From: a virus
Virus record (IMG/VR): IMGVR_UViG_3300028392_000049
Span: 24,680 to 88,679 of that record
Direction: 5' to 3' (one strand)
DNA: 64,000 nt
Both the position numbers and the translations under genes were made by a program. Shown here piece by piece: positions 10,002-64,000 of the stretch (positions are counted from its first letter, which is position 1; each line of letters opens with the position of its first letter). A model generated the notes under the pieces. The model was not told the DNA's origin, searched no databases, and worked only from the letters and a program-made list of their open reading frames with translations.

Positions 10002-11588
10002 CTAAACTGAAGTGTTAGCGACAAATGCCCTAAGAGAACCAAGAGTCAAGTCCACTCCACCCTTGTCATCAATGCCTTCGCCATCCATAACTGCATTGGC
10101 TACTGAGTTTTTTTGTTGCAAAGCGTCGTGTTGCCGTACTTCAATAGACCCATTAACTAAAAAATCTTGAATAACAATGGTTGCCCAAGTTGAAGACGCT
10201 CGTTTAATTCTTCCGTTTCTTTGAGTAGCCAACCCACTAGACCACGGTAAGTCATAGTTTATAAGTAAGTTAGCAGCAGGGAGATCAACACCATAACCCC
10301 CAGCATCGCTGCTAACCAAAACTCTGATGTCTGGGTTAGTGTTAAAAGAAATTTTGTTATCTTCTTTTGTTTTAGCATCTATACGTCCTGTGTATATAAG
10401 AGTTCGGTCAGCGCCGAGTCTTTCTTGGATAATGCTTACCATGTCAACGTAAGTAGCAAAAATAACTACCTTGTTGTCAGGCCTTTGATCAAGAAAATCT
10501 GTAACGTATTCAATAAGCATGTTAAGTTTAGGGGACGATGTGACGCCGTCCAGTATTCCTGAGTCTACCAAGTCATATGCATATTGTGAACCATCAGGGC
10601 CAAGATCGGCAAACTTTTCCGCACTGGTACGGATAAGATCGGGGTGGGAACACAACATTTTAAGCGCCCCTACTTTAGACATAATAGCTCCGCGCAGTTC
10701 GTCAGCCTGTCCGCCGCGTTGATTTTCAAACCCATAGTGAGCAAGCATATTAAATGAAGAGCCAAACAGAGCCTGTGCGTTATCCAAATCATAAAGCAAG
10801 TCGTTAACAATTTTGCTGTATACCTTGGCAGCTTTTCTATCAAAATGAACAAGAAAAGGATCTTTATGAATAGAGTCAGGAAGGTAAGGAGCTACGTCAG
10901 CGTCTTTCTGCGACTTGCGGACAGACGCCTCTTTCATCTTGGTGTGTAGTACAGGCAGATTTCGGTAGCGCTCTACACCACCCCAGGTGTTTCGTACAAT
11001 AAAAGTCTGGTCAAAGATATCAAAACGACCAAGAACGCTTTGGTCTACAAACTGCATAATGGAGTACAACTCTTCAGGCTTACCGTTTTCAATCGGCGTA
11101 CCTGTAAGAGCAAACTTGATAGGAGCATTGGCTAATTTTTTAACTTGCTTTGAACGTTTAGACTTAAACGACTTGATGGCTGTAGCTTCGTCTAACACCA
11201 CAAAAGATCTTGGTAACTTTTTGACTATGTCCCAGTCGTTAACTACCTGTTCGTAGTTCATGATGATGTAGTCAACGCCAGACATCTCCCAGTCCATAGC
11301 CTCAGCGTATTGAGCATGTCGTTGCTTAGGAGTTCCATCAATAACGATAGCTTTAGAGGTTCCCCCCGTAAATTTTTCTATGGAGTTAGACCATTGATAT
11401 TTTAAACTTGATAGGCAAACAACTAAACCTGGCCCAGCAATCTTGTCTTCTTGCTGTAGTCGCTCTATTGCAGCAATGGTGAGGACCGTCTTACCTAAAC
11501 CTAAGTCATATGCAACGAGCATCTTCTGCTGTTCGCACATTCGATCTACGGCCTCTACTTGGTAGGGCAGAAGTGTACCTGTAAACAT
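10002..11588 (-). CDS. SNF2-type DNA helicase/translocase
   Basis: A 528-residue SF2 ATPase. Walker A DLGLGKTVLTI near residue 28, motif II VLDEAT near residue 132 (DEAT instead of DEAH), motif III ALTGTPIENG near residue 160. The second RecA-like lobe carries VVIFATYVDM, SSDAGGYGVDLPAANLLI and motif VI QRNGRIKR. The order and spacing match SNF2/RapA-like phage helicases involved in remodelling or recombination. It stands between a terminator at 11606 and the transglycosylase gene. Confidence 0.9.
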   Translation of the reverse strand: MFTGTLLPYQVEAVDRMCEQQKMLVAYDLGLGKTVLTIAAIERLQQEDKIAGPGLVVCLSSLKYQWSNSIEKFTGGTSKAIVIDGTPKQRHAQYAEAMDWEMSGVDYIIMNYEQVVNDWDIVKKLPRSFVVLDEATAIKSFKSKRSKQVKKLANAPIKFALTGTPIENGKPEELYSIMQFVDQSVLGRFDIFDQTFIVRNTWGGVERYRNLPVLHTKMKEASVRKSQKDADVAPYLPDSIHKDPFLVHFDRKAAKVYSKIVNDLLYDLDNAQALFGSSFNMLAHYGFENQRGGQADELRGAIMSKVGALKMLCSHPDLIRTSAEKFADLGPDGSQYAYDLVDSGILDGVTSSPKLNMLIEYVTDFLDQRPDNKVVIFATYVDMVSIIQERLGADRTLIYTGRIDAKTKEDNKISFNTNPDIRVLVSSDAGGYGVDLPAANLLINYDLPWSSGLATQRNGRIKRASSTWATIVIQDFLVNGSIEVRQHDALQQKNSVANAVMDGEGIDDKGGVDLTLGSLRAFVANTSV

Positions 11589-11605
11589 AAGTTTACTCTA
11601 GCACA

Positions 11606-11633
11606 CAAAAAGCCCAGGCATAAAGCCTGGGCT
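11606..11633 (-). terminator. intrinsic terminator after the M23 peptidase gene
   Basis: A perfect 9-bp stem AGCCCAGGC/GCCTGGGCT with a 5-nt loop, followed on the minus strand by TTTTTG. It lies between the M23 peptidase stop and the helicase start. Confidence 0.85.
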
Positions 11634-11647
11634 GATTGCAGTAAAGG

Positions 11648-12073
11648 TTAAACCTTGAATAGAAAATCTGGGTTAAGATGACCATCCCAAGCCCAGTTAG
11701 CGGTCTTTTGAACTTCAAAGTGAAGGTGCTCACCAAAGACGTTGCCATCTTCTGGGTGCCCAGCGCGGCCGCCAGATTCACCAATGTGCTGACCCTTCTT
11801 AACGTGGTCACCGACTTTAACAAGAGCCTGCATTAAGTGTGCGTATACAGCCCAATACTTCTTACCAGCAACGTCATGCTCAACGATAAGCGAGTGTGTC
11901 CCAAAAGCAGCACCCCAAGTGCCAACTCCTACAACCTTACCGTCAGCAACTGCAAGTACATCTGTACCAGCTTTGCATGGAAAGTCACAGCCTTTATGGA
12001 CTCCGTGGGACCAAGCGTCCCCCTTTTCGCCATAGGGCGTTCCGATTTTTCCGCCTGCGATTGGTAATGCCAT
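11648..12073 (-). CDS. M23-family metallopeptidase endolysin
   Basis: A 141-residue protein consisting only of a peptidase M23 domain. The zinc ligands are in HKGCD (near residue 27) and EHLHFEV (near residue 114), with the beta-hairpin VKVGDHVKKGQHIGESG typical of the family. It hydrolyses peptide cross-links in peptidoglycan. There is no signal peptide or wall-binding domain, so export would need a holin. The ribosome site AGGAG overlaps the stop codon of the upstream 25-residue membrane peptide. Confidence 0.9.
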   Translation of the reverse strand: MALPIAGGKIGTPYGEKGDAWSHGVHKGCDFPCKAGTDVLAVADGKVVGVGTWGAAFGTHSLIVEHDVAGKKYWAVYAHLMQALVKVGDHVKKGQHIGESGGRAGHPEDGNVFGEHLHFEVQKTANWAWDGHLNPDFLFKV

Positions 12074-12081
12074 TGTGTCTC

Positions 12082-12159
12082 CTAGTGGTTATCAAAATAA
12101 AAAAGAATTGCTATGCCAGACATACAAGAAGCAAAAAACATAATATTAAAAAGAGTCAT
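12082..12159 (-). CDS. 25-residue membrane peptide
   Basis: An ATG overlapping the primase stop (ATGA) opens a 25-codon frame, M-T-L-F-N-I-M-F-F-A-S-C-M-S-G-I-A-I-L-F-Y-F-D-N-H, almost entirely hydrophobic, that ends in a TAG forming part of the M23 ribosome binding site. The perfect fit between two coupled genes supports translation. A single transmembrane span next to an endolysin suggests a lysis accessory peptide, but a simple coupling leader is possible. Confidence 0.45.
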   Translation of the reverse strand: MTLFNIMFFASCMSGIAILFYFDNH

Positions 12160-17711: not shown

Positions 17712-18194
17712 TTAAGGTCTGCCATAAATAATGTGGTATGCCCCTAGATTACCATTTTTTTGAGAAGTAGTGCAGAAAGGGTTAACAAAATCCCCAGTGC
17801 CAATGCTTAGTGGGCTTCCTGGATAAGCTGTGTAATAAAAACCAGTAGCTCCAGGAGCTGTAGATGGATTAGTATCAAAGTAGCCATCATTTATACTTGC
17901 TGGGCATTTAATGACAAATGAATTTTCCCCAACTACTTTTACAATTGGTATATCAGTTAAAGCTAAAAGAGTTTGAGTATAAGGGGTCGGAACCATTGTT
18001 GCGTACAATCCATTAATTGTTACATTATTTCCCGCAGTAAAGTTATGAGGATCTTCAGTAGTAATTAAGGCGTATTTAGATAGTGTTCCTGGGTAATAAC
18101 CATAAGTATTAAAGTCATTATCTTTAGTAGTAAAGTCTAAAGCAAACCCTACTACTCGGGCAGACAAGGAATCAAAGCTAGCTTTTCTAGGCAT
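17712..18194 (-). CDS. tail-tip structural protein
   Basis: A 160-residue protein from the ATG at 18194, which overlaps the stop of the large baseplate gene by 8 nt. It contains a beta-rich module DPHNFTAGNNVTINGLY of the same kind found in the 1,206-residue neighbour and in the surface protein at 51372. The C-terminus is Gly/Tyr-rich. Position at the end of the baseplate cluster suggests a fibre tip or receptor-contacting component. Confidence 0.5.
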   Translation of the reverse strand: MPRKASFDSLSARVVGFALDFTTKDNDFNTYGYYPGTLSKYALITTEDPHNFTAGNNVTINGLYATMVPTPYTQTLLALTDIPIVKVVGENSFVIKCPASINDGYFDTNPSTAPGATGFYYTAYPGSPLSIGTGDFVNPFCTTSQKNGNLGAYHIIYGRP

Positions 18195-21100
18195 AGTACA
18201 TTCCTTCCAAAACAATTCGATCTACAATACCCGTGTTAACTACACGGTTTTGGTACAGGTGACTTCTACTCCAACCAGCTTCTTCTTCCCACATAGAGTC
18301 CCTATCTGAAAGGTAGCTATACCCATCAAAGTATCCATCAAAATAAGGGTTAATTGAACTTGATTGCTCGGCTAAAATTCCATCTACATATACGCTTGCA
18401 GAACTACTTGCTGTGCTCTCTAGTTTCATGATTGCGTAAGACGCCGTTGCTGGAGCTAGCGCATTGGCAATTCCGACATTAGTCCAGGCAGTATTACTAA
18501 TGCTTGTTGCCGTACCAGTAGATGTGGATAAAAGGTTTGTATTAAAATCATACCAAGAAACTGACATGGTAAACGTCTGGTTTGCTGAACCACCATTAAC
18601 TTTTAAGTATGCACTAAACGAATACGCATTTCCTGGTGTAACTGTTACAGGGACTGGTCTATTGTACGGACCAAAAGTATTATTATCAGTTCCCATTGTC
18701 ATGCCAAAGCCACTAGTAGCGCCCGCAACTGACATAAGAAGACATGCTGATGTAGGTCCTACGTAACCAGTGCTAGTGTTGCGAGCAATAGTAGTAGTAT
18801 ACGACGATCCGACTAATCCTGAAAATCCGATAAGGGATGTGGTTGGGTACAAAGTAGGATTTGGAAATAGATTTGTTCTTGTCGGATTAATTTTTATACT
18901 AGTTGTCCGCGCATCTTCAAAGCCTACTGGAACAGAAGAAACGTATCCAGTTTCAGAAACGTATGTTTCTGCGGTGGCTTGAGTTCCGCCATTGTAAGAG
19001 AATGAGTAAACCTTAGCAGGAGTATTTTGATACACTGCCGTGATTGCTACGTTAGACGTGTTATAGGTCGACGTACTAGTTTTAACTGTGACGCTATTTC
19101 CGATAACAAAGTTATGTGGGTTTGCTGTATACAAAGTGTAATTAGAAAATGTGTATGGAGCGGTTACTCCAAATGCAGCGGTGCTTGACATGGTTACTGT
19201 TCCAGAACCTATAGCCGTAACTGTTCCACCACCAGCAGGACCACTTACAGCCATGCCTACTACAATCCCTGCTGTTGAAGTAACAGATGTAAGAACATTT
19301 GATCCAGTAGTAGCAGTTGCCGTGCTTACAATTTTTGTAAATAATCGACCAGTTACTGCAATGGGAGGAACTAATTGAGCGGCATCCACCCAGTAACCTG
19401 CGGTTGTTAGAGTTTGGATATCAAAACGTGGGCAACAGAACGCAGCAGTAGCTGGGCTTAGGTCACTAACCTGTGCCTGTGCCCAGGTGTTGTTTGTTTG
19501 AGATGCAGAGGATAAAGTTCCCACAGCAGACGTGCTAATGAATGCCCCGTTTTTATCGTACCAATCTAATTTAACAGTTGCTGTACGCTTAGTTCCAGAT
19601 CCGCCATTAAAGTACATTCCAAATGCGTATGGAGTATTAGGCTCAATTGCCACTCCTGCTGTAATAGCGCTTGAGGAATCTACATTAGGAATATCAGAAA
19701 AAATTAACTGTGTTCCAGTTGGAATGCTTGACACAATATATTGAACGCCATTTTTATCTTTAAAGGCCACGCGTGAAGTTGATGAGTCAATGCTTGATAC
19801 ATAAAGACCTTTTGGTAGACTATTATTGGTTTGATCTACTACGTAGTCTCCAACTTTTGCTTTAAAAGGTCTAATAACTATTGCAGTGCTTGAACTAATA
19901 GATACAACTTGTGCTCGGCGTGGGCCCATAACATACGATGCCGTTACCCCAGAACCACTTTCGGTAATAACATATCCAATATTTGAAGTAGTATTGTTAG
20001 AAAATGCTAATGAAGACCCAGCTGATGTTACAGAGGTCGGCGGTTTATTGACATGAATAGTTGTGCTATTAATTACAGCAGTTACTTGCATCTGTGGCGC
20101 AGGACTTGTTCCGCTAGTCAAATTATATATTTGACTACCTAGCTGGATTTTAGATGAGTCTGTAACGTAAAGAGCAATTCCATTATTGACAACTTGAGAA
20201 AGAACTCCAAAAGTTGTGGCTGTACCAGGAACATTGTTGTTACTTATTGTCACTGTTGTAGAGGTAGTTGCAGTAATTACGCCTTGAGCATTGTAACCAG
20301 AAGGAGCCATTCCCACAGCAATTGCAGACTGACCTAAAACAAATGGGTGCCCAGATCCCACAGTGTACGTAATGGTACTAGACGTCGTTGATGCTGCAGT
20401 AATTGCCCACCCAAATTGAGCTGAGTTAGTTGTTTTAATTTCGTAAAAAGGCACACCATTACCATATGCTGGGTCGGCTGTTATATTAAAGTAAGATGAT
20501 ACCGACCCTTGAGGCGCAGAAACTTTTGCAAACAGTGGTGAATATAGTGTGCGTGTAAACGGGGCTGTTGTAGCCACCGATGACTGGTTATACCCAATGG
20601 TAGATGTGTAATCGGGCTGCCACCATCCAGTTGAATTGACAAAAGATGAGGTATCATAATCTGGCAAAATATTTTTAGGCTTAGCTATAGTAACCCCGTA
20701 GCCTGTGTAGGATTCAATTAGCTCAGAAAGCCCTAAAGTTGAACCATTGTTTTGATATACCCTAGATATATTTTTAAGCAGCTTGCGAGCTTGGTCAATG
20801 GTATTAACATTGCTGTAGTCTCCACCAAATTGTTGAATCCATTTTTTAAGAAATACTTCGTCTGCTGTTTTAGGGTTACTTAAATTAAGCACGCCTTTAT
20901 TAAGAGCAGTGTAAGTATCAATATGAAAAGCAAGTAGACTAAGAAAAGTTTTAAGATCAGTATTTTCCTTGCCATCATTTGTTAAAGTATAAAATCTAGG
21001 AAGATGTGAAGTTAAAATATCAAGTGTTCCATTATCTGGAACAGCTAGGCAAGAAACTTGACCTATGTTTTTCCAATAAAATTTTGATAATTTTGCTGTA

Positions 21101-21807
21101 TCAACAAGGTCCGCACTAGAAAAGGTGCTTGTGGATACCCGAGCAAATAAAGTGTAGTAATACTTTGGAGCAGCGATTACTTTATTATTTCCAGATACAG
21201 TATTTACCGCAGTTCCTACTACCCCATAGCCTGAATTAGTAGTTTGAGCAGTGGACGTTCCTGTATCAAAAATATGGTAGTTGTTAGCTACTCCCAAAGA
21301 AGTAGTTGAGGTACTAGTTGATCCTAAGTACTTACCACTAATTCTAATAATATCATTTTGAGAGTACCCAGAACCAACCGCATTAACCACTGCAGTTGAT
21401 ATGCTTCCACTAGAATTAGTAGTGACAGTAAAGGAAGCTCCACGACCATTGGTGGGGGTAGTGGTACTAGAAACAAAGTTAATTGAGGATGAGGTTGTGG
21501 TTACAACAGTTGTTGTGCTGACTGTATAAGCGTTTGCTTTTGAGTAAGTAAGAGTCGATCCTGTGATACCGCCATTTGAATCTACAGATGTTACAGTAAT
21601 TTCAACACTATCTGTGGTAGATGTGTAAATTTGCACACCATCATTTGGATTATTTGGATAACCTGAAGTTTTTCTTACTAGTACTAAATCTGTCCAGTTC
21701 AATGCTTCTGGAACAGTTGACCAACTAATGTGATTAACAAAGTAGTTTGATGGACGTGCATCCATAACTACATCATAGTTTGGATCAACGTTAGTTAAAA
21801 ACGTCAC
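18187..21807 (-). CDS. large baseplate protein with gpI-like wedge region and adhesive beta modules
   Basis: 1,206 residues from a GTG (GTGA overlap with the gpJ-like gene). Residues about 255-380 (FHIDTYTALNKGVL, WIQQFGGDY, ARKLLKNISRVYQNNGS) match the phage P2 gpI tail protein family, which anchors fibres to the wedge. The N-terminal 250 residues and everything after about 400 are Thr/Ser/Val-rich beta modules, including HPFVLGQSAIAVG, NPHNFVIGNSVTV and GIVVGMAVSGPAGGGTV, then two similar carbohydrate-binding-like blocks (YAFGMYFNGGSG and YSFSAYLKVNGGS). It appears to fuse a wedge protein with receptor-binding domains. Confidence 0.72.
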   Translation of the reverse strand: MTFLTNVDPNYDVVMDARPSNYFVNHISWSTVPEALNWTDLVLVRKTSGYPNNPNDGVQIYTSTTDSVEITVTSVDSNGGITGSTLTYSKANAYTVSTTTVVTTTSSSINFVSSTTTPTNGRGASFTVTTNSSGSISTAVVNAVGSGYSQNDIIRISGKYLGSTSTSTTSLGVANNYHIFDTGTSTAQTTNSGYGVVGTAVNTVSGNNKVIAAPKYYYTLFARVSTSTFSSADLVDTAKLSKFYWKNIGQVSCLAVPDNGTLDILTSHLPRFYTLTNDGKENTDLKTFLSLLAFHIDTYTALNKGVLNLSNPKTADEVFLKKWIQQFGGDYSNVNTIDQARKLLKNISRVYQNNGSTLGLSELIESYTGYGVTIAKPKNILPDYDTSSFVNSTGWWQPDYTSTIGYNQSSVATTAPFTRTLYSPLFAKVSAPQGSVSSYFNITADPAYGNGVPFYEIKTTNSAQFGWAITAASTTSSTITYTVGSGHPFVLGQSAIAVGMAPSGYNAQGVITATTSTTVTISNNNVPGTATTFGVLSQVVNNGIALYVTDSSKIQLGSQIYNLTSGTSPAPQMQVTAVINSTTIHVNKPPTSVTSAGSSLAFSNNTTSNIGYVITESGSGVTASYVMGPRRAQVVSISSSTAIVIRPFKAKVGDYVVDQTNNSLPKGLYVSSIDSSTSRVAFKDKNGVQYIVSSIPTGTQLIFSDIPNVDSSSAITAGVAIEPNTPYAFGMYFNGGSGTKRTATVKLDWYDKNGAFISTSAVGTLSSASQTNNTWAQAQVSDLSPATAAFCCPRFDIQTLTTAGYWVDAAQLVPPIAVTGRLFTKIVSTATATTGSNVLTSVTSTAGIVVGMAVSGPAGGGTVTAIGSGTVTMSSTAAFGVTAPYTFSNYTLYTANPHNFVIGNSVTVKTSTSTYNTSNVAITAVYQNTPAKVYSFSYNGGTQATAETYVSETGYVSSVPVGFEDARTTSIKINPTRTNLFPNPTLYPTTSLIGFSGLVGSSYTTTIARNTSTGYVGPTSACLLMSVAGATSGFGMTMGTDNNTFGPYNRPVPVTVTPGNAYSFSAYLKVNGGSANQTFTMSVSWYDFNTNLLSTSTGTATSISNTAWTNVGIANALAPATASYAIMKLESTASSSASVYVDGILAEQSSSINPYFDGYFDGYSYLSDRDSMWEEEAGWSRSHLYQNRVVNTGIVDRIVLEGMYYA

Positions 21808-60622: not shown

Positions 60623-60670
60623 CCCCCTAGCCACAGCCGATTAACAGCGCGGTGGCTAGGGGGTTTTTTT
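60623..60670 (+). terminator. strong intrinsic terminator
   Basis: CCCCCTAGCCAC/GTGGCTAGGGGG, a perfect 12-bp stem with a 17-nt loop, followed by seven T. It ends the 60247-60566 transcript. An ATG with GGAGG just upstream (60620) would start translation into this hairpin, so an attenuator role is possible. Confidence 0.9.
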
Positions 60671-60769
60671 ATTCTCCCCGAAGGGGGCGGGGTGGGAGGG
60701 CCAACACAAACATCATGGCTTTACGGGTGTAGGCGACAAACTGTACCCCAAACCCCAAAAGAGAGAAGC

Positions 60770-60832
60770 TTATCCACAGCCCTACAACAAAAAAGTTTCA
60801 GCAAAGAATAATTGGCTGATTATGGTATAGAG
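60770..60832 (+). repeat. copy 2 of the DnaA-box/promoter-like repeat
   Basis: TTATCCACAGCCCTACAAC, AACAAAAAAGTTTCAGC and AAAGAATAATTGGCTGATTA. Nearly identical to copy 3 in the first 50 bases. Upstream of the 60917 gene by 85 bases including a GC-rich leader hairpin. Confidence 0.7.
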
Positions 60833-60916
60833 TTGTCTTATTGGTTAGGGCGACGACCGACGGGTGTGGGCGGAGACACCGCCCACCCCTAATCATGTGA
60901 GAGAGGACGTGCTCCC

Positions 60917-61123
60917 ATGGATGCACAAACCGACTACGAGATAGTCACCTATCAAGGTGGCTATGCTACAGTCATAAGCCCTGACGGTTGCGACGCACGC
61001 GTAATGCGCTTCGCGGACAACGGTCGCACACACGTGGTGCTCAAAACCTTTACGGGCGAAACAGCGCACCAGGACGCGGAACGCCTAGTACTGAGTTACG
61101 TACTGCGCCTAGTGCACGGATAG
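60917..61123 (+). CDS. early plus-strand protein
   Basis: A 68-residue protein (MDAQTDYEIVTYQGGYATVI, then DARVMRFADNGRTHVVLKTF). A beta-rich, compact, probably DNA- or protein-binding domain. GAGAGGACG lies about 10 bases before the ATG. No family recognised. Confidence 0.62.
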   Translation: MDAQTDYEIVTYQGGYATVISPDGCDARVMRFADNGRTHVVLKTFTGETAHQDAERLVLSYVLRLVHG

Positions 61124-61129
61124 CCAACT

Positions 61130-61154
61130 GGGTAGCCCTTCGGGGCTACCCTTT
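61130..61154 (+). terminator. intrinsic terminator after 60917 gene
   Basis: GGGTAGCCC/GGGCTACCC, 9 bp, with a TTCG tetraloop, followed by TTTAT. The tail overlaps the next DnaA-box-like site. Confidence 0.75.
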
Positions 61155-61180
61155 ATCCACAGCTTATCCACAAGCTGTGG
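61153..61180 (+). other. two DnaA-box-like sites in a small hairpin
   Basis: TTATCCACA occurs at 61153-61161 and again at 61164-61172, eleven bases apart (one helical turn). CCACAGCTT (61157-61165) pairs with AAGCTGTGG (61172-61180). With the copies at 59758, 60770, 61271 and 62658, six boxes occupy 2.9 kb: a candidate origin or DnaA-responsive region. Confidence 0.55.
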
Positions 61181-61186
61181 AGAGGC

Positions 61187-61259
61187 CCAACACAAACAAG
61201 CCAAAAGCCATAGCCCGCCCTAATGGCGTTAAGGCTGGCTTTTGGCTTGTTTGTGTTGG
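61187..61259 (+). repeat. long intergenic hairpin, copy A
   Basis: Arms at 61187-61210 and 61236-61259 are perfect reverse complements over 24 bases, starting CCAACACAAACAAGC. The 25-nt apex contains CGCC-CTAAT-GGCG followed by TTAAGGC. Between the terminator of the previous gene and the DnaA-box repeat of the next. Confidence 0.85.
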
Positions 61260-61270
61260 CCTTGCTTCAC

Positions 61271-61332
61271 TTATCCACAGCCCTACAACAAAAAAGTTTC
61301 AGCAAAGAATAATTGGCTGATTAGGTGATAGA
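61271..61332 (+). repeat. copy 3 of the DnaA-box/promoter-like repeat
   Basis: TTATCCACAGCCCTACAAC and AACAAAAAAGTTTCAGC are identical to copy 2; they diverge at the end (GATTAGGTGATAG). It lies 11 bases after hairpin A and 33 bases before the GP88-like gene. Confidence 0.7.
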
Positions 61333-61364
61333 TTAGTTTCATAAGCACGAGAGAGGGAAACACT

Positions 61365-62102
61365 ATGCTTAAACGCTCTAATGATGCCAAAGTTACTAAC
61401 CTAATACGTGTTAGTAATACGGCTAAAGGCATTAAGTACGTTAGTAATCTAGCCAACTCATTCGGGTTGCCTAGCGGGCTATCGTTCTCATGCCCTGGCG
61501 CTACGTCAGTCTGTGAGTCTGTCTGCTACGCGGGCAAACTTGAACGACTACGTCCAAAGGTTCGCAATGTACTACAGCACAACTGGGATCAGTTGCGCAA
61601 TGCGAACTACAGCACGATGTTCAAACTGCTATCAGTAATGATTCGCGGGTTCGATGCAGAGTGTGACGAGAAGGATGCAGAGAAGTTATTCCGCATCCAC
61701 TGGGATGGCGACTTCTTCAACGATGACTACACGCAAGCGTGGGGAGACGTTGTAAGAGCCAACCCGCAGATTCGGTTCTGGGTTTACACTCGCACCGAGA
61801 AGAGCGCTATCATGCTACAGGATATGAGACTAGATAACCTAGCCTTGTACTTCTCAACCGATAGCGCCAACAAGTCAATAGGCGAAAGCCTAGCGATAAA
61901 TCACGGAATCAAGTTAGCCTACCTCGCGGACACATTCGCGAACGGTAAAGCTGACATGGAATCCATATCGCTCAAGTCAGTGCGATGCCCTGAGAATAAC
62001 AAGGCTATCAAAATCATTGACGAGAACGGTAGCGCATGCATCAAGTGTGGTGCTTGTGTATTCGGTCGCAATAACGTACTATTTAGTGCGACTAAAAAAT
62101 AA
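61365..62102 (+). CDS. GP88-family protein with two Cys clusters
   Basis: A 245-residue protein. GLSFSCPGATSVCESVCYAG near residue 40 and SACIKCGACVFGRN near residue 228 give two cysteine clusters, and the middle (LFRIHWDGDFFNDDYTQAW and FWVYTRTEKSA) fits the gene-product-88 family seen in phages and plasmids. An iron-sulfur or zinc site is likely and the barrel-like spacing hints at a radical-SAM-like fold, though no CxxxCxxC of that type is seen. Function unknown. Confidence 0.75.
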   Translation: MLKRSNDAKVTNLIRVSNTAKGIKYVSNLANSFGLPSGLSFSCPGATSVCESVCYAGKLERLRPKVRNVLQHNWDQLRNANYSTMFKLLSVMIRGFDAECDEKDAEKLFRIHWDGDFFNDDYTQAWGDVVRANPQIRFWVYTRTEKSAIMLQDMRLDNLALYFSTDSANKSIGESLAINHGIKLAYLADTFANGKADMESISLKSVRCPENNKAIKIIDENGSACIKCGACVFGRNNVLFSATKK

Positions 62103-62153
62103 ACCAACGGGCGGGGGAGCAATCCCCCGTCCACCTATTGAGGGAGTACTACA

Positions 62154-62498
62154 ATGACTATGAATACTTACTGTAGCGAAATTGACCACGACGGTTACAG
62201 CGGGCTATGGGTTATCCACGAACTAACCGAGGACAGCAAGGGCATTGAAATCAAGTTCAACGTCAATGATTCCTGGTCAGATAAGGATACCTACCTATTC
62301 GGGCGTACATGCGTACGAGCAGAGCGTGATGAATACCGAGGTGAGGAATGCGCCGAGAAGCCATGGAAGTTCACCAACACAATGATGGACATTCTGCAAG
62401 AGGACATTGACAACGGATGCCAGAACATGGATCATGTCAGTCAGTTCTTGAATGATGCTAAGTTCATTACAGTCCTAGACAGTTACGAACGACTATAA
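62154..62498 (+). CDS. early plus-strand protein
   Basis: A 114-residue protein (YCSEIDHDGYSGLWVIHELT, WKFTNTMMDILQEDIDNGCQ). Acidic, with GAGGGAG upstream of the ATG. It follows the GP88 gene without its own promoter repeat, so the two form one transcript. No family recognised. Confidence 0.6.
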   Translation: MTMNTYCSEIDHDGYSGLWVIHELTEDSKGIEIKFNVNDSWSDKDTYLFGRTCVRAERDEYRGEECAEKPWKFTNTMMDILQEDIDNGCQNMDHVSQFLNDAKFITVLDSYERL

Positions 62499-62501
62499 GC
62501 C

Positions 62502-62542
62502 AAGCCACCCAGCCCACTTCCCTCGGGCTGGGTGGCTTTTTT
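62502..62542 (+). terminator. strong intrinsic terminator
   Basis: AAGCCACCCAGCCC/GGGCTGGGTGGCTT, a 14-bp perfect stem with a 9-nt loop and a following T run. Ends the GP88 transcript. Confidence 0.9.
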
Positions 62543-62548
62543 ATTGCC

Positions 62549-62619
62549 CCAACACAAACAAGCACAAAGCACAGCTCGCTTTTGGCGTTAAAGCTGTGCT
62601 TTGTGCTTGTTTGTGTTGG
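62549..62619 (+). repeat. long intergenic hairpin, copy B
   Basis: Arms at 62549-62576 and 62592-62619 are perfect reverse complements over 28 bases; they share CCAACACAAACAAGC with copy A but differ beyond it (CACAAAGCACAGCT instead of CAAAAGCCA), and the opposite arm has the matching changes. The 15-nt apex is CGCTTTTGGCGTTAA. Confidence 0.88.
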
Positions 62620-62657
62620 CCTGTCATATCCCTTTAAACAATGGCCTAGAAGAGAAG

Positions 62658-62720
62658 TTATCCACAGGCTTACAACAAAAAAGTTTCAGCAGAGAATAAT
62701 TGGCTAGTTATCGTGTAGTG
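62658..62720 (+). repeat. copy 4 of the DnaA-box/promoter-like repeat
   Basis: TTATCCACAGGCTTACAAC and AACAAAAAAGTTTCAGC, slightly diverged, followed by AGAGAATAATTGGCTAG. It is 38 bases after hairpin B and 126 bases before the DUF932 gene. Confidence 0.68.
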
Positions 62721-62846
62721 TTGGAGACATCAAGCCAACGGCACGCAACGGCTGGCGCGGAAGTACCGCGTACCGCTGTGGCGGACACGCACCTAGTGCG
62801 TGTGTCAGGGTGTGCACGTTCGCTTGTGTGAGAGGGGTGTTGCTTT

Positions 62847-63878
62847 ATGGCACACAATCTTGAAATGAATAACGGCAACGTTGCATTCGCTTTACGCGGT
62901 GCACCTGCATGGCACGGGCTGGCACAGCACGTCTTCACCGAGGACGAGCACGTCACTACCGCGCAGATGTTGGACAGCGCGTTGCTGTCGGGTTGGAATG
63001 TACGTCTTGAGGACATCATTCTGCCCGAGGGTTACACAACCGACAAGGCACACCAGATGGTGGTGCGCGACAATCCATTCCCTGATAAGGCTGGAGAGCG
63101 CAACGTCCTAGGTGTTGTCGGAGAGCGTTACCACACCTACCAGAATGAAGAGTTATTCGCTTTCGGCGATAACCTGCTTGATGGTGGTGGCTATTGGGAG
63201 TCTGCTGGCTCTATTAAGAATGGTCGCGTGGTATTCGGTTCTCTCAAGTTGGATAAGGACTTCGTCCTAGACCCACAAGGCATTGCAGATAAGACCGAGT
63301 CTTACCTGCTCATTACGACCTCGCACGACGGTTCAGCCGCTATCCAAGCGATGACAACCCCAGTGCGCGTAGTGTGCCAGAATACGCTTAACGCCGCGCT
63401 TGATGGTACTAAGCAGTCCTACAAAGTCCGCCACACTGCCACGGCTGGTGGACGCGTAGACCAAGCGCGACTAGCGTTGGGACTCACGTTCGATTACATG
63501 GACAAGTTCCAAGCAACCGCCGAAGCGCTGTTCGCCACGTCAATGACGGACAAGCAATTCCACGACATCGTCAAGGCTCTGTACCCAGAACCTGCCGAGG
63601 ACGCTGGCAAGGCAAGCGTGACCAAGTACGAGTCCAAGATTGAACTAATCAGCGACCTGTACTTCGATAGTCCAACTCAGTTGGGTATCAAGGGAACCGC
63701 TTGGGGAGCATACAACGCGCTCACAGAGCGTGTGGATTACTTCCGCCAAGGTCGCTTGGTCAAGGGTGCTCAGAACTCTGAGGACGCTCAACTAGCGAGC
63801 GCGTCAGGCTTCGACGCACAAGCCACAGCCGAGAAGAACCGCATTCTAAGCGCGGTACGCGAACTCGCTGGGGTATAG
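62847..63878 (+). CDS. DUF932-family phage/plasmid protein
   Basis: A 343-residue protein, starting MAHNLEMNNGNVAFALRGAP and AWHGLAQHVFTEDE, with VVGERYHTYQNEELFAFGD and SYLLITTSHDGSAAIQAMTT. This is the DUF932 (phage/plasmid-like TIGR03299) family, a conserved protein of mobile elements, probably nucleic-acid related but not characterised. It is the longest of the early genes and is preceded by a long structured leader. Confidence 0.85.
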   Translation: MAHNLEMNNGNVAFALRGAPAWHGLAQHVFTEDEHVTTAQMLDSALLSGWNVRLEDIILPEGYTTDKAHQMVVRDNPFPDKAGERNVLGVVGERYHTYQNEELFAFGDNLLDGGGYWESAGSIKNGRVVFGSLKLDKDFVLDPQGIADKTESYLLITTSHDGSAAIQAMTTPVRVVCQNTLNAALDGTKQSYKVRHTATAGGRVDQARLALGLTFDYMDKFQATAEALFATSMTDKQFHDIVKALYPEPAEDAGKASVTKYESKIELISDLYFDSPTQLGIKGTAWGAYNALTERVDYFRQGRLVKGAQNSEDAQLASASGFDAQATAEKNRILSAVRELAGV

Positions 63879-63895
63879 CAAGCCCAATAAGGAAA

Positions 63896-63926
63896 CCCTC
63901 TAGCCGAAAGGCTAGGGGGTTTTTTT
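63896..63926 (+). terminator. strong intrinsic terminator after the DUF932 gene
   Basis: CCCTCTAGCC/GGCTAGGGGG with a GAAA loop and seven T. The stem resembles that of the 60623 terminator (CTAGCC/GGCTAG core), so the two may share an ancestor. Confidence 0.88.
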
Positions 63927-63935
63927 ATGCCCTCT

Positions 63936-63949
63936 GCCAGGATCCTGGC
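63936..63949. other. 14-bp palindrome
   Basis: GCCAGGATCCTGGC is a perfect palindrome just after the terminator. Such sites can be regulator or recombinase targets; no partner was seen in the window. Confidence 0.4.
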
Positions 63950-63961
63950 CAGGAAGCTGTC

Positions 63962-64000
63962 CCAACACAAACAAGCATCAAGCTCGCCTTTTTGGCGTTA
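63962..64000 (+). repeat. long intergenic hairpin, copy C (cut by the window edge)
   Basis: The left arm CCAACACAAACAAGCATCAA plus GCT and the apex CGCCTTTTTGGCGTTA match the layout of copies A and B. The right arm, predicted to be AGCTTGATGCTTGTTTGTGT plus TGG, would lie beyond the window. Confidence 0.72.

What the first reader, a model, noticed from the sequence alone, without database searches (positions are those of the whole stretch)
60701..64000. Repeated intergenic hairpins with compensatory arm changes
Three hairpins (61187-61259, 62549-62619, 63962 onward) share CCAACACAAACAAGC at the base of the left arm and a GGCGTTA apex, but the upper stems differ (CAAAAGCCA, CACAAAGCACAGCT, ATCAAGCT) and in both complete copies the opposite arm carries the matching changes, giving 24 and 28 perfect pairs. 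Divergence with retained pairing points to selection on structure. The elements sit between a strong terminator and a DnaA-box repeat in each spacer and have no U-tract. A lone half-arm at 60701-60712 looks like a decayed copy. Arm-to-arm copying by template switching could also preserve pairing, so RNA function is not proven. Possible roles are 3'-end protection, replication-fork or recombination structures, a small RNA, or a mobile palindrome.
Basis: partly seen in the sequence, partly recalled or inferred. Interest (0 to 1): 0.86.

Follow-up and report, generated by a model that had tools for sequence, protein, structure and literature searches.

The report
Perfect DNA hairpins between phage genes
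Between the early genes of this uncultured bacterial virus, and of many relatives, sit long and flawlessly matched DNA hairpins with a shared base but different upper parts, apparently marking the borders of swappable gene cassettes.

Summary
The three hairpins have 24, 28 and 24 perfect pairs. The missing right arm of copy C exists as predicted, because the record's first 127 nt repeat its last 127 nt. The same element occurs in 37 other viral contigs. Its outer 11-13 nt are shared within each phage group, its inner arms differ between copies, and it lies between a terminator and a group-specific operator/promoter region of early-gene cassettes (DUF932, MoxR/VWA). Five related base motifs occur. 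Within one co-directional array the C/A-rich arm comes first in early spacers and the G/T-rich arm in later ones, so transcription polarity does not explain the layout. Inner stems held 617 Watson-Crick pairs and no G-U in 59 elements; neighbouring terminators do show G-U and RNA-type tetraloops, which the palindromes largely lack. Orthologous arms are more conserved than flanks and the next gene, and modules change at the hairpins. I read them as DNA-level (foldback/cruciform) boundary and regulatory elements, kept perfect by arm-templated copying plus selection. RNA function is not excluded; what they do is inferred. Closest known: actinophage ESAS/cluster EG inverted repeats, T4 PeSLs, N4 hairpin promoters. 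None fits.

The parts
60623..60672 (+). intrinsic terminator (CCCCCTAGCCAC...GTGGCTAGGGGG + T7) of the spacer with the solo motif
   Evidence: inverted repeat I10
60701..60712 (.). solo base motif CCAACACAAACA without a partner arm
60769..60841 (+). TTATCCACAG box plus ACAACAAAAAAGTTTCA repeat, operator/promoter-like region
   Evidence: direct repeat D1
61130..61155 (+). terminator GGGTAGCCCTTCGGGGCTACCC + TTTAT before hairpin A
61187..61259 (.). hairpin A, 24 perfect pairs, C/A-rich arm first ('in' class)
   Evidence: (I4)
61270..61342 (+). box + operator/promoter-like repeat
   Evidence: (D1)
61365..62102 (+). GP88 family gene of the cassette after hairpin A
   Evidence: PF17338
62154..62498 (+). 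114-aa ORF, no family match
62502..62545 (+). terminator AAGCCACCCAGCCC...GGGCTGGGTGGCTTTTTTA
   Evidence: (I14)
62549..62619 (.). hairpin B, 28 perfect pairs
   Evidence: (I2)
62657..62729 (+). box + operator/promoter-like repeat
   Evidence: (D1)
62847..63878 (+). DUF932 gene, the gene most often next to these hairpins in relatives
   Evidence: PF06067
63894..63927 (+). terminator CCCTCTAGCC-GAAA-GGCTAGGGGG + T7
63961..64000 (.). left arm and apex of hairpin C; the right arm lies past the window (record position 129-152, L008), 24 perfect pairs in all

Best explanation
These are copies of a phage DNA foldback (palindrome) element that occupies the gap between the terminator of one early-gene cassette and the operator/promoter of the next. 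SHOWN: fixed location, shared base motif per genome, different inner arms, all-Watson-Crick stems, arms more conserved than flanks, gene neighbours that change on either side of similar hairpins. INFERRED: the working form is DNA (a cruciform or ssDNA hairpin); a DNA-binding protein recognises the base motif and has co-evolved with it, giving five related motifs; the folded element insulates or gates the adjacent early promoter and serves as the junction where cassettes are exchanged; arm-templated DNA synthesis removes single-arm mutations, so changes appear on both arms at once.
For: Location: a terminator was found on one side in 45 of 59 elements, on both in none and on neither in 14; median gap to the hairpin 4 nt. 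Pairing: 617 inner pairs all WC, no G-U, no mismatch; after removing near-duplicates 508 of 508 WC against 391 WC and 7 G-U in 34 neighbouring terminators, Fisher p 0.003. Loops: RNA-type GNRA/UUCG in 10 of 16 terminator tetraloops but 1 of 28 palindrome tetraloops; GNA-type triloops, known as very stable DNA mini-hairpins (PMC4686876, passages), in 15 of 28 triloops. Class switch inside co-directional arrays. Base motif shared within a genome while inner arms differ. Arms: median identity 1.00, loop 0.91, upstream 60 nt 0.86, downstream 100 nt 0.83, next 400 nt 0.755 over 17 ortholog pairs. Similar hairpins with different neighbours: after F19 before F4 or F8; before F8 after F19 or F23; after DUF932 before F19 or F23. 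Palindromes containing inverted copies of the neighbouring operator sequence (G028:389, G028:1201, G032:4115).
Against: No experiment shows folding in vivo or any binding protein. RNAfold puts some G-U in the loops: 43 of 1894 pairs in type I and 132 of 1421 in the 46 shorter-stem pairs, which include chance hits. The stem walk drops elements that break early, so the zero is partly conditioned. The GNA count includes orthologs and is mostly from type II elements, not the window's copies. In one ortholog pair (L211/L233) the hairpin differs while flanks are conserved. In two of five aligned sets varying pairs with a non-WC state outnumber clean double changes (3 to 1 and 4 to 3). No cause for the in/out switch was found; skew follows gene direction.
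Confidence: 0.48

Rival explanations
1. RNA hairpin: read-through past the terminator makes a ~2-turn perfect double-stranded RNA that acts as a back-up terminator, RNase III site or 3'-end shield, insulating the next cassette.
For: Sits next to a terminator in the sense direction; stems mostly of 18-36 bp; in 'in' copies the 3' arm is U/G-rich; compensatory changes in orthologs.
Against: It lies beyond the terminator and before the presumed promoter, so it would be transcribed only by read-through; no G-U in 617 inner pairs; RNA-type tetraloops nearly absent although terminators beside it have them; no Rfam family; in/out classes swap arm order under the same transcription direction.
Confidence: 0.25
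3. Replication or priming signals: foldbacks plus DnaA-type boxes form single-strand initiation sites or an origin region.
For: 8 of the 11 exact TTATCCACA sites in the record lie in the array; branched 105-143-nt forms precede the MoxR gene.
Against: Boxes missing in 7 of 8 records with other base motifs; no GC-skew switch at the array or at the in/out border beyond what gene direction gives.
Confidence: 0.12

Closest known systems
ESAS (extended start-associated sequences) of cluster K mycobacteriophages, and the cluster EG/O inverted repeats (PMC3203893, PMC7302621; passages read)
   Same: Inverted repeats repeated in intergenic gaps of the non-structural half of actinophages; base consensus differs between sub-groups; function unknown.
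   Different: ESAS are imperfect 17-bp repeats with mostly 4-13-bp spacers placed at start codons; here arms are mostly 18-36 bp, perfect, with a constant base and variable inner part, placed after the terminator.
PeSL promoter/stem-loop cassettes of T4-type phages (Arbiol 2010, Comeau 2014: not held; known here from a passage in PMC4503421)
   Same: Stem-loop plus early promoter between genes, associated with shuffling of modules.
   Different: Here a separate terminator exists and the extra palindrome lacks a T run.
Phage N4 early hairpin promoters (PMC4496689; passages read)
   Same: DNA hairpins at early promoters whose stem has conserved and variable bases.
   Different: N4 hairpins have a short stem (7 bp in the structure described), a 3-base loop and serve a virion RNA polymerase; here stems are far longer and lie upstream of an operator region.
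Template-switch maintained hairpins (PMC8794818; abstract and passages read)
   Same: Explains simultaneous changes on both arms.
   Different: A mutational process, not a functional class.

Membership tests
ESAS / short actinophage inverted repeats | imperfect 17-bp arms, 4-13-bp spacer | tested here: not met
   perfect arms mostly of 18-36 bp with loops of about 12-57 nt
ESAS / short actinophage inverted repeats | immediately upstream of a start codon with an SAS | tested here: not met
   hairpins A and B end 105 and 227 nt before the next ORF start; SAS motif itself not searched
PeSL | stem-loop and early promoter in one spacer | tested here: inconclusive
   order terminator-hairpin-operator is clear but no promoter was mapped
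PeSL | stem-loop is the terminator | tested here: not met
   a separate terminator precedes the hairpin in 45 of 59
N4 virion RNAP promoter | short stem (7 bp in the structure read) with 3-base loop | tested here: not met
N4 virion RNAP promoter | giant virion RNA polymerase gene | tested here: inconclusive
   longest ORF in the window 1206 aa, no Pfam or PHROG match
Integron attC array | tyrosine integrase | tested here: not met
   PF00589 in 0 of 19 records, control rings in 14 of 14; records may be fragments
Intrinsic terminator | T run after the 3' arm | tested here: not met
   window copies A, B and C
Rfam RNA family | match at gathering score | tested here: not met
   0 matches in 8 loci; window stretch gave only sub-threshold microRNA and sRNA hits

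The most novel reading that the evidence does not exclude
A DNA-structure based control system of actinophage early genes: each cassette is preceded by a foldback whose base motif is read by a co-evolving hairpin-binding protein, with two arm-order classes and branched forms. The upper arms diversify freely as long as the DNA fold stays perfect.
Probability: 0.25. Interest if true: 0.86.

Novelty: new variant of a known kind. Interest (0 to 1): 0.67.

Why it matters
Hairpins that change on both arms at once are the classical sign of functional RNA. Here is a natural series in which the same sign appears with no G-U intermediates in the stems, beside terminators that do show them, so the series can be used to separate RNA selection from DNA-level copying. 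If the boundary role holds, it also names the physical joints at which early gene cassettes of these viruses are exchanged and separately regulated.

Tried and rejected
A 15-mer scan of viral contigs gave mostly chance hits but contained L040, which opened the family. Scans with the window's exact inner arm or its operator repeat found nothing. A scan for the window's arm order found only three unrelated stretches. The one bacterial hit (L265, Acetobacteraceae MAG) lies between chromosomal genes; one such match in a collection this size may be chance.

Replication-origin reading of the in/out switch: rejected for now, because arm order in a palindrome is the same on both strands and skew shows no break of its own. 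Integron-like reading: rejected. DUF932 as the binding protein: not pursued, since most of the 80 DUF932 loci lack the hairpins. Cultured phages: no motif-bearing hairpin in the six regions (scan) nor in the three stretches of DSL-LC01 fetched, which leave out record positions 60001-79999.

Literature: searches showed no description of this element; some searches were the ones aimed at it. The PeSL papers themselves are not held.

Rows dropped before counts: 46 of 105 motif pairs with stems under 18 were left out of the pair count; seven loci named in the script were left out of the loop count as coding or chance pairs; hits in L262-L265 were left out. The flip list used missed some reversed loci; redid the orientation.
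Full report
What was checked. Hairpins A and B are exactly as described. No perfect stem in 12 dinucleotide shuffles of the region exceeded 11 bp, against 28 observed. Each spacer runs terminator, hairpin, TTATCCACA box with the ACAACAAAAAAGTTTCA repeat, next gene. The genes of the array read rightward. The nearest annotated relatives of the DUF932 gene are in phages of Streptomyces and other actinobacteria, so the host is probably an actinobacterium (inference).

The family. L040 carries four such hairpins, but with the arms in the other order: GTTTGTGTTGG first and CCAACACAAAC last. A scan for that order found 55 stretches of viral DNA, chance pairs included. A DUF932 profile scan then brought in phages with other base motifs: TTGTTGAGTTGG, TTGTTGGGTTGG, TTGTTAGGTTGG and TGTTTGGGTTGG. 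Over all loci held, 118 perfect hairpins (91 distinct) of at least 18 bp with a loop of 9-75 nt and a loosely defined motif lie in 39 records; one is the bacterial MAG, so 38 are viral, the window's included (which left out L001-L007 as duplicates of the window's record). Of 17 further rows listed without the motif, 14 are in L287, L288 and L298 or their second copies, most with a clipped motif or operator sequence, and three are unrelated. In 84,980 species genomes the pattern GTTTGTGTTGG...CCAACACAAAC occurs once.

Anatomy. In 59 elements of the first motif group (stem at least 18), a GC-rich terminator lies on exactly one side in 45 and on neither in 14; the median gap is 4 nt. Beyond the hairpin comes a TTATCCACA-type box in 41 of 59: CTGTGGATAA in 36 and TTATCCACAG in 2 with the G/T arm first, TTATCCACAG in the window's 3. 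The other motif groups have different tandem motifs there (read by eye) and mostly no such box. Gene order in the array varies around a common set (DUF932, F8, F4, F12, MoxR, VWA; the F names are my family numbers; MoxR and VWA are named from recall of the sequences). Some elements are branched, with two or three inner hairpins; those before the MoxR gene reach 105-143 nt.

In and out classes. Within single contigs the C/A-arm-first class fills the upstream spacers and the G/T-arm-first class the downstream ones: 4 then 3 in G026, 3 then 3 in G027, 1 then 3 in G029, G030 and G031, 3 then 4 in G032 (a small hairpin that the call also labels IN in G026 is a terminator stem, and a nested repeat in G027 was not counted). 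Genes run the same way throughout apart from small, probably spurious ORFs. Because a palindrome reads the same on both strands, this is not a direction signal. I have no explanation for it; skew does not change there.

DNA or RNA. The inner pairs of the 59 elements are 617 Watson-Crick with no G-U and no mismatch. With near-duplicates removed they are 508 of 508, while 34 neighbouring terminators have 391 Watson-Crick and 7 G-U (p 0.003). This count is conditioned on stems of at least 18 found from their outer ends; RNAfold on whole elements does place some G-U pairs, 43 of 1894 in these 59, 22 of 1061 in 35 elements of the other groups and 132 of 1421 in the 46 shorter ones. Terminator tetraloops are GNRA or UUCG in 10 of 16, palindrome tetraloops in 1 of 28; that GNRA and UUCG are the favoured RNA tetraloops is recalled. 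Palindrome triloops are GNA on one strand in 15 of 28, against a 7% background; orthologs are included, so the p-value is optimistic. GNA loops make very stable DNA mini-hairpins (PMC4686876, passages). Template switching in DNA replication can create and maintain such stems (PMC8794818, abstract and passages). Three palindromes contain inverted copies of the neighbouring operator sequence, one with 64-bp arms.

Selection and shuffling. In 17 ortholog pairs median identity is 1.00 in arms, 0.91 in loops, 0.86 in the 60 nt upstream, 0.83 in the 100 nt downstream and 0.755 in the next 400 nt; the pairs were chosen by hand, are not independent, and one (L211/L233) goes the other way. Five aligned sets gave 18 varying pairs that are Watson-Crick throughout and 8 with some other state; 7 of the 8 are in two poorly aligned sets. 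Similar hairpins occur with different genes before or after them (the clusters are single-linkage and loose).

Conclusion. The elements work most plausibly as DNA foldbacks at the borders of early-gene cassettes. What they do there, whether insulating or gating the promoter or serving as exchange joints, is inference. ESAS and cluster EG repeats, PeSLs and N4 hairpin promoters are the nearest known things; each fails at least one tested defining feature.

Noticed in passing
L282:10840-10979, L270:11328-11470, L232:2775-2914: Branched element upstream of the MoxR ATPase gene: a 7-11-bp closing stem, three long hairpins, and conserved CCCACCC linkers.
   Followed up: partly
L376 (G028), reverse-strand positions 389-528 and 1201-1313: Palindromes with arms up to 64 bp that include inverted copies of the adjacent operator-like repeats.
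   Followed up: partly
L081:2519-8411, L088, L110, L100: The motif CCAACACAAACA recurs on one strand at roughly 0.4-1.3 kb spacing without partner arms, a possible start- or promoter-associated repeat in other phages.
   Followed up: no
L074:9287-9701: A tandem array of CCAACACAAACA, mostly at 30-nt spacing.
   Followed up: no
L265:303-373: The same base motif on a perfect hairpin between chromosomal genes of an Acetobacteraceae MAG.
   Followed up: partly
L127, L128: DUF932-bearing phages with several copies of another intergenic repeat (GGCCCGCAAA...GTTACG followed by a TGTCAG...TATAAT promoter-like repeat).
   Followed up: no
L008:12234-13730 and 10140-12158: The phage encodes a queuine tRNA-ribosyltransferase-like protein and a ribonucleotide reductase.
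   Followed up: no
window 18187-21807: A 1206-aa ORF without Pfam or PHROG match.
   Followed up: no
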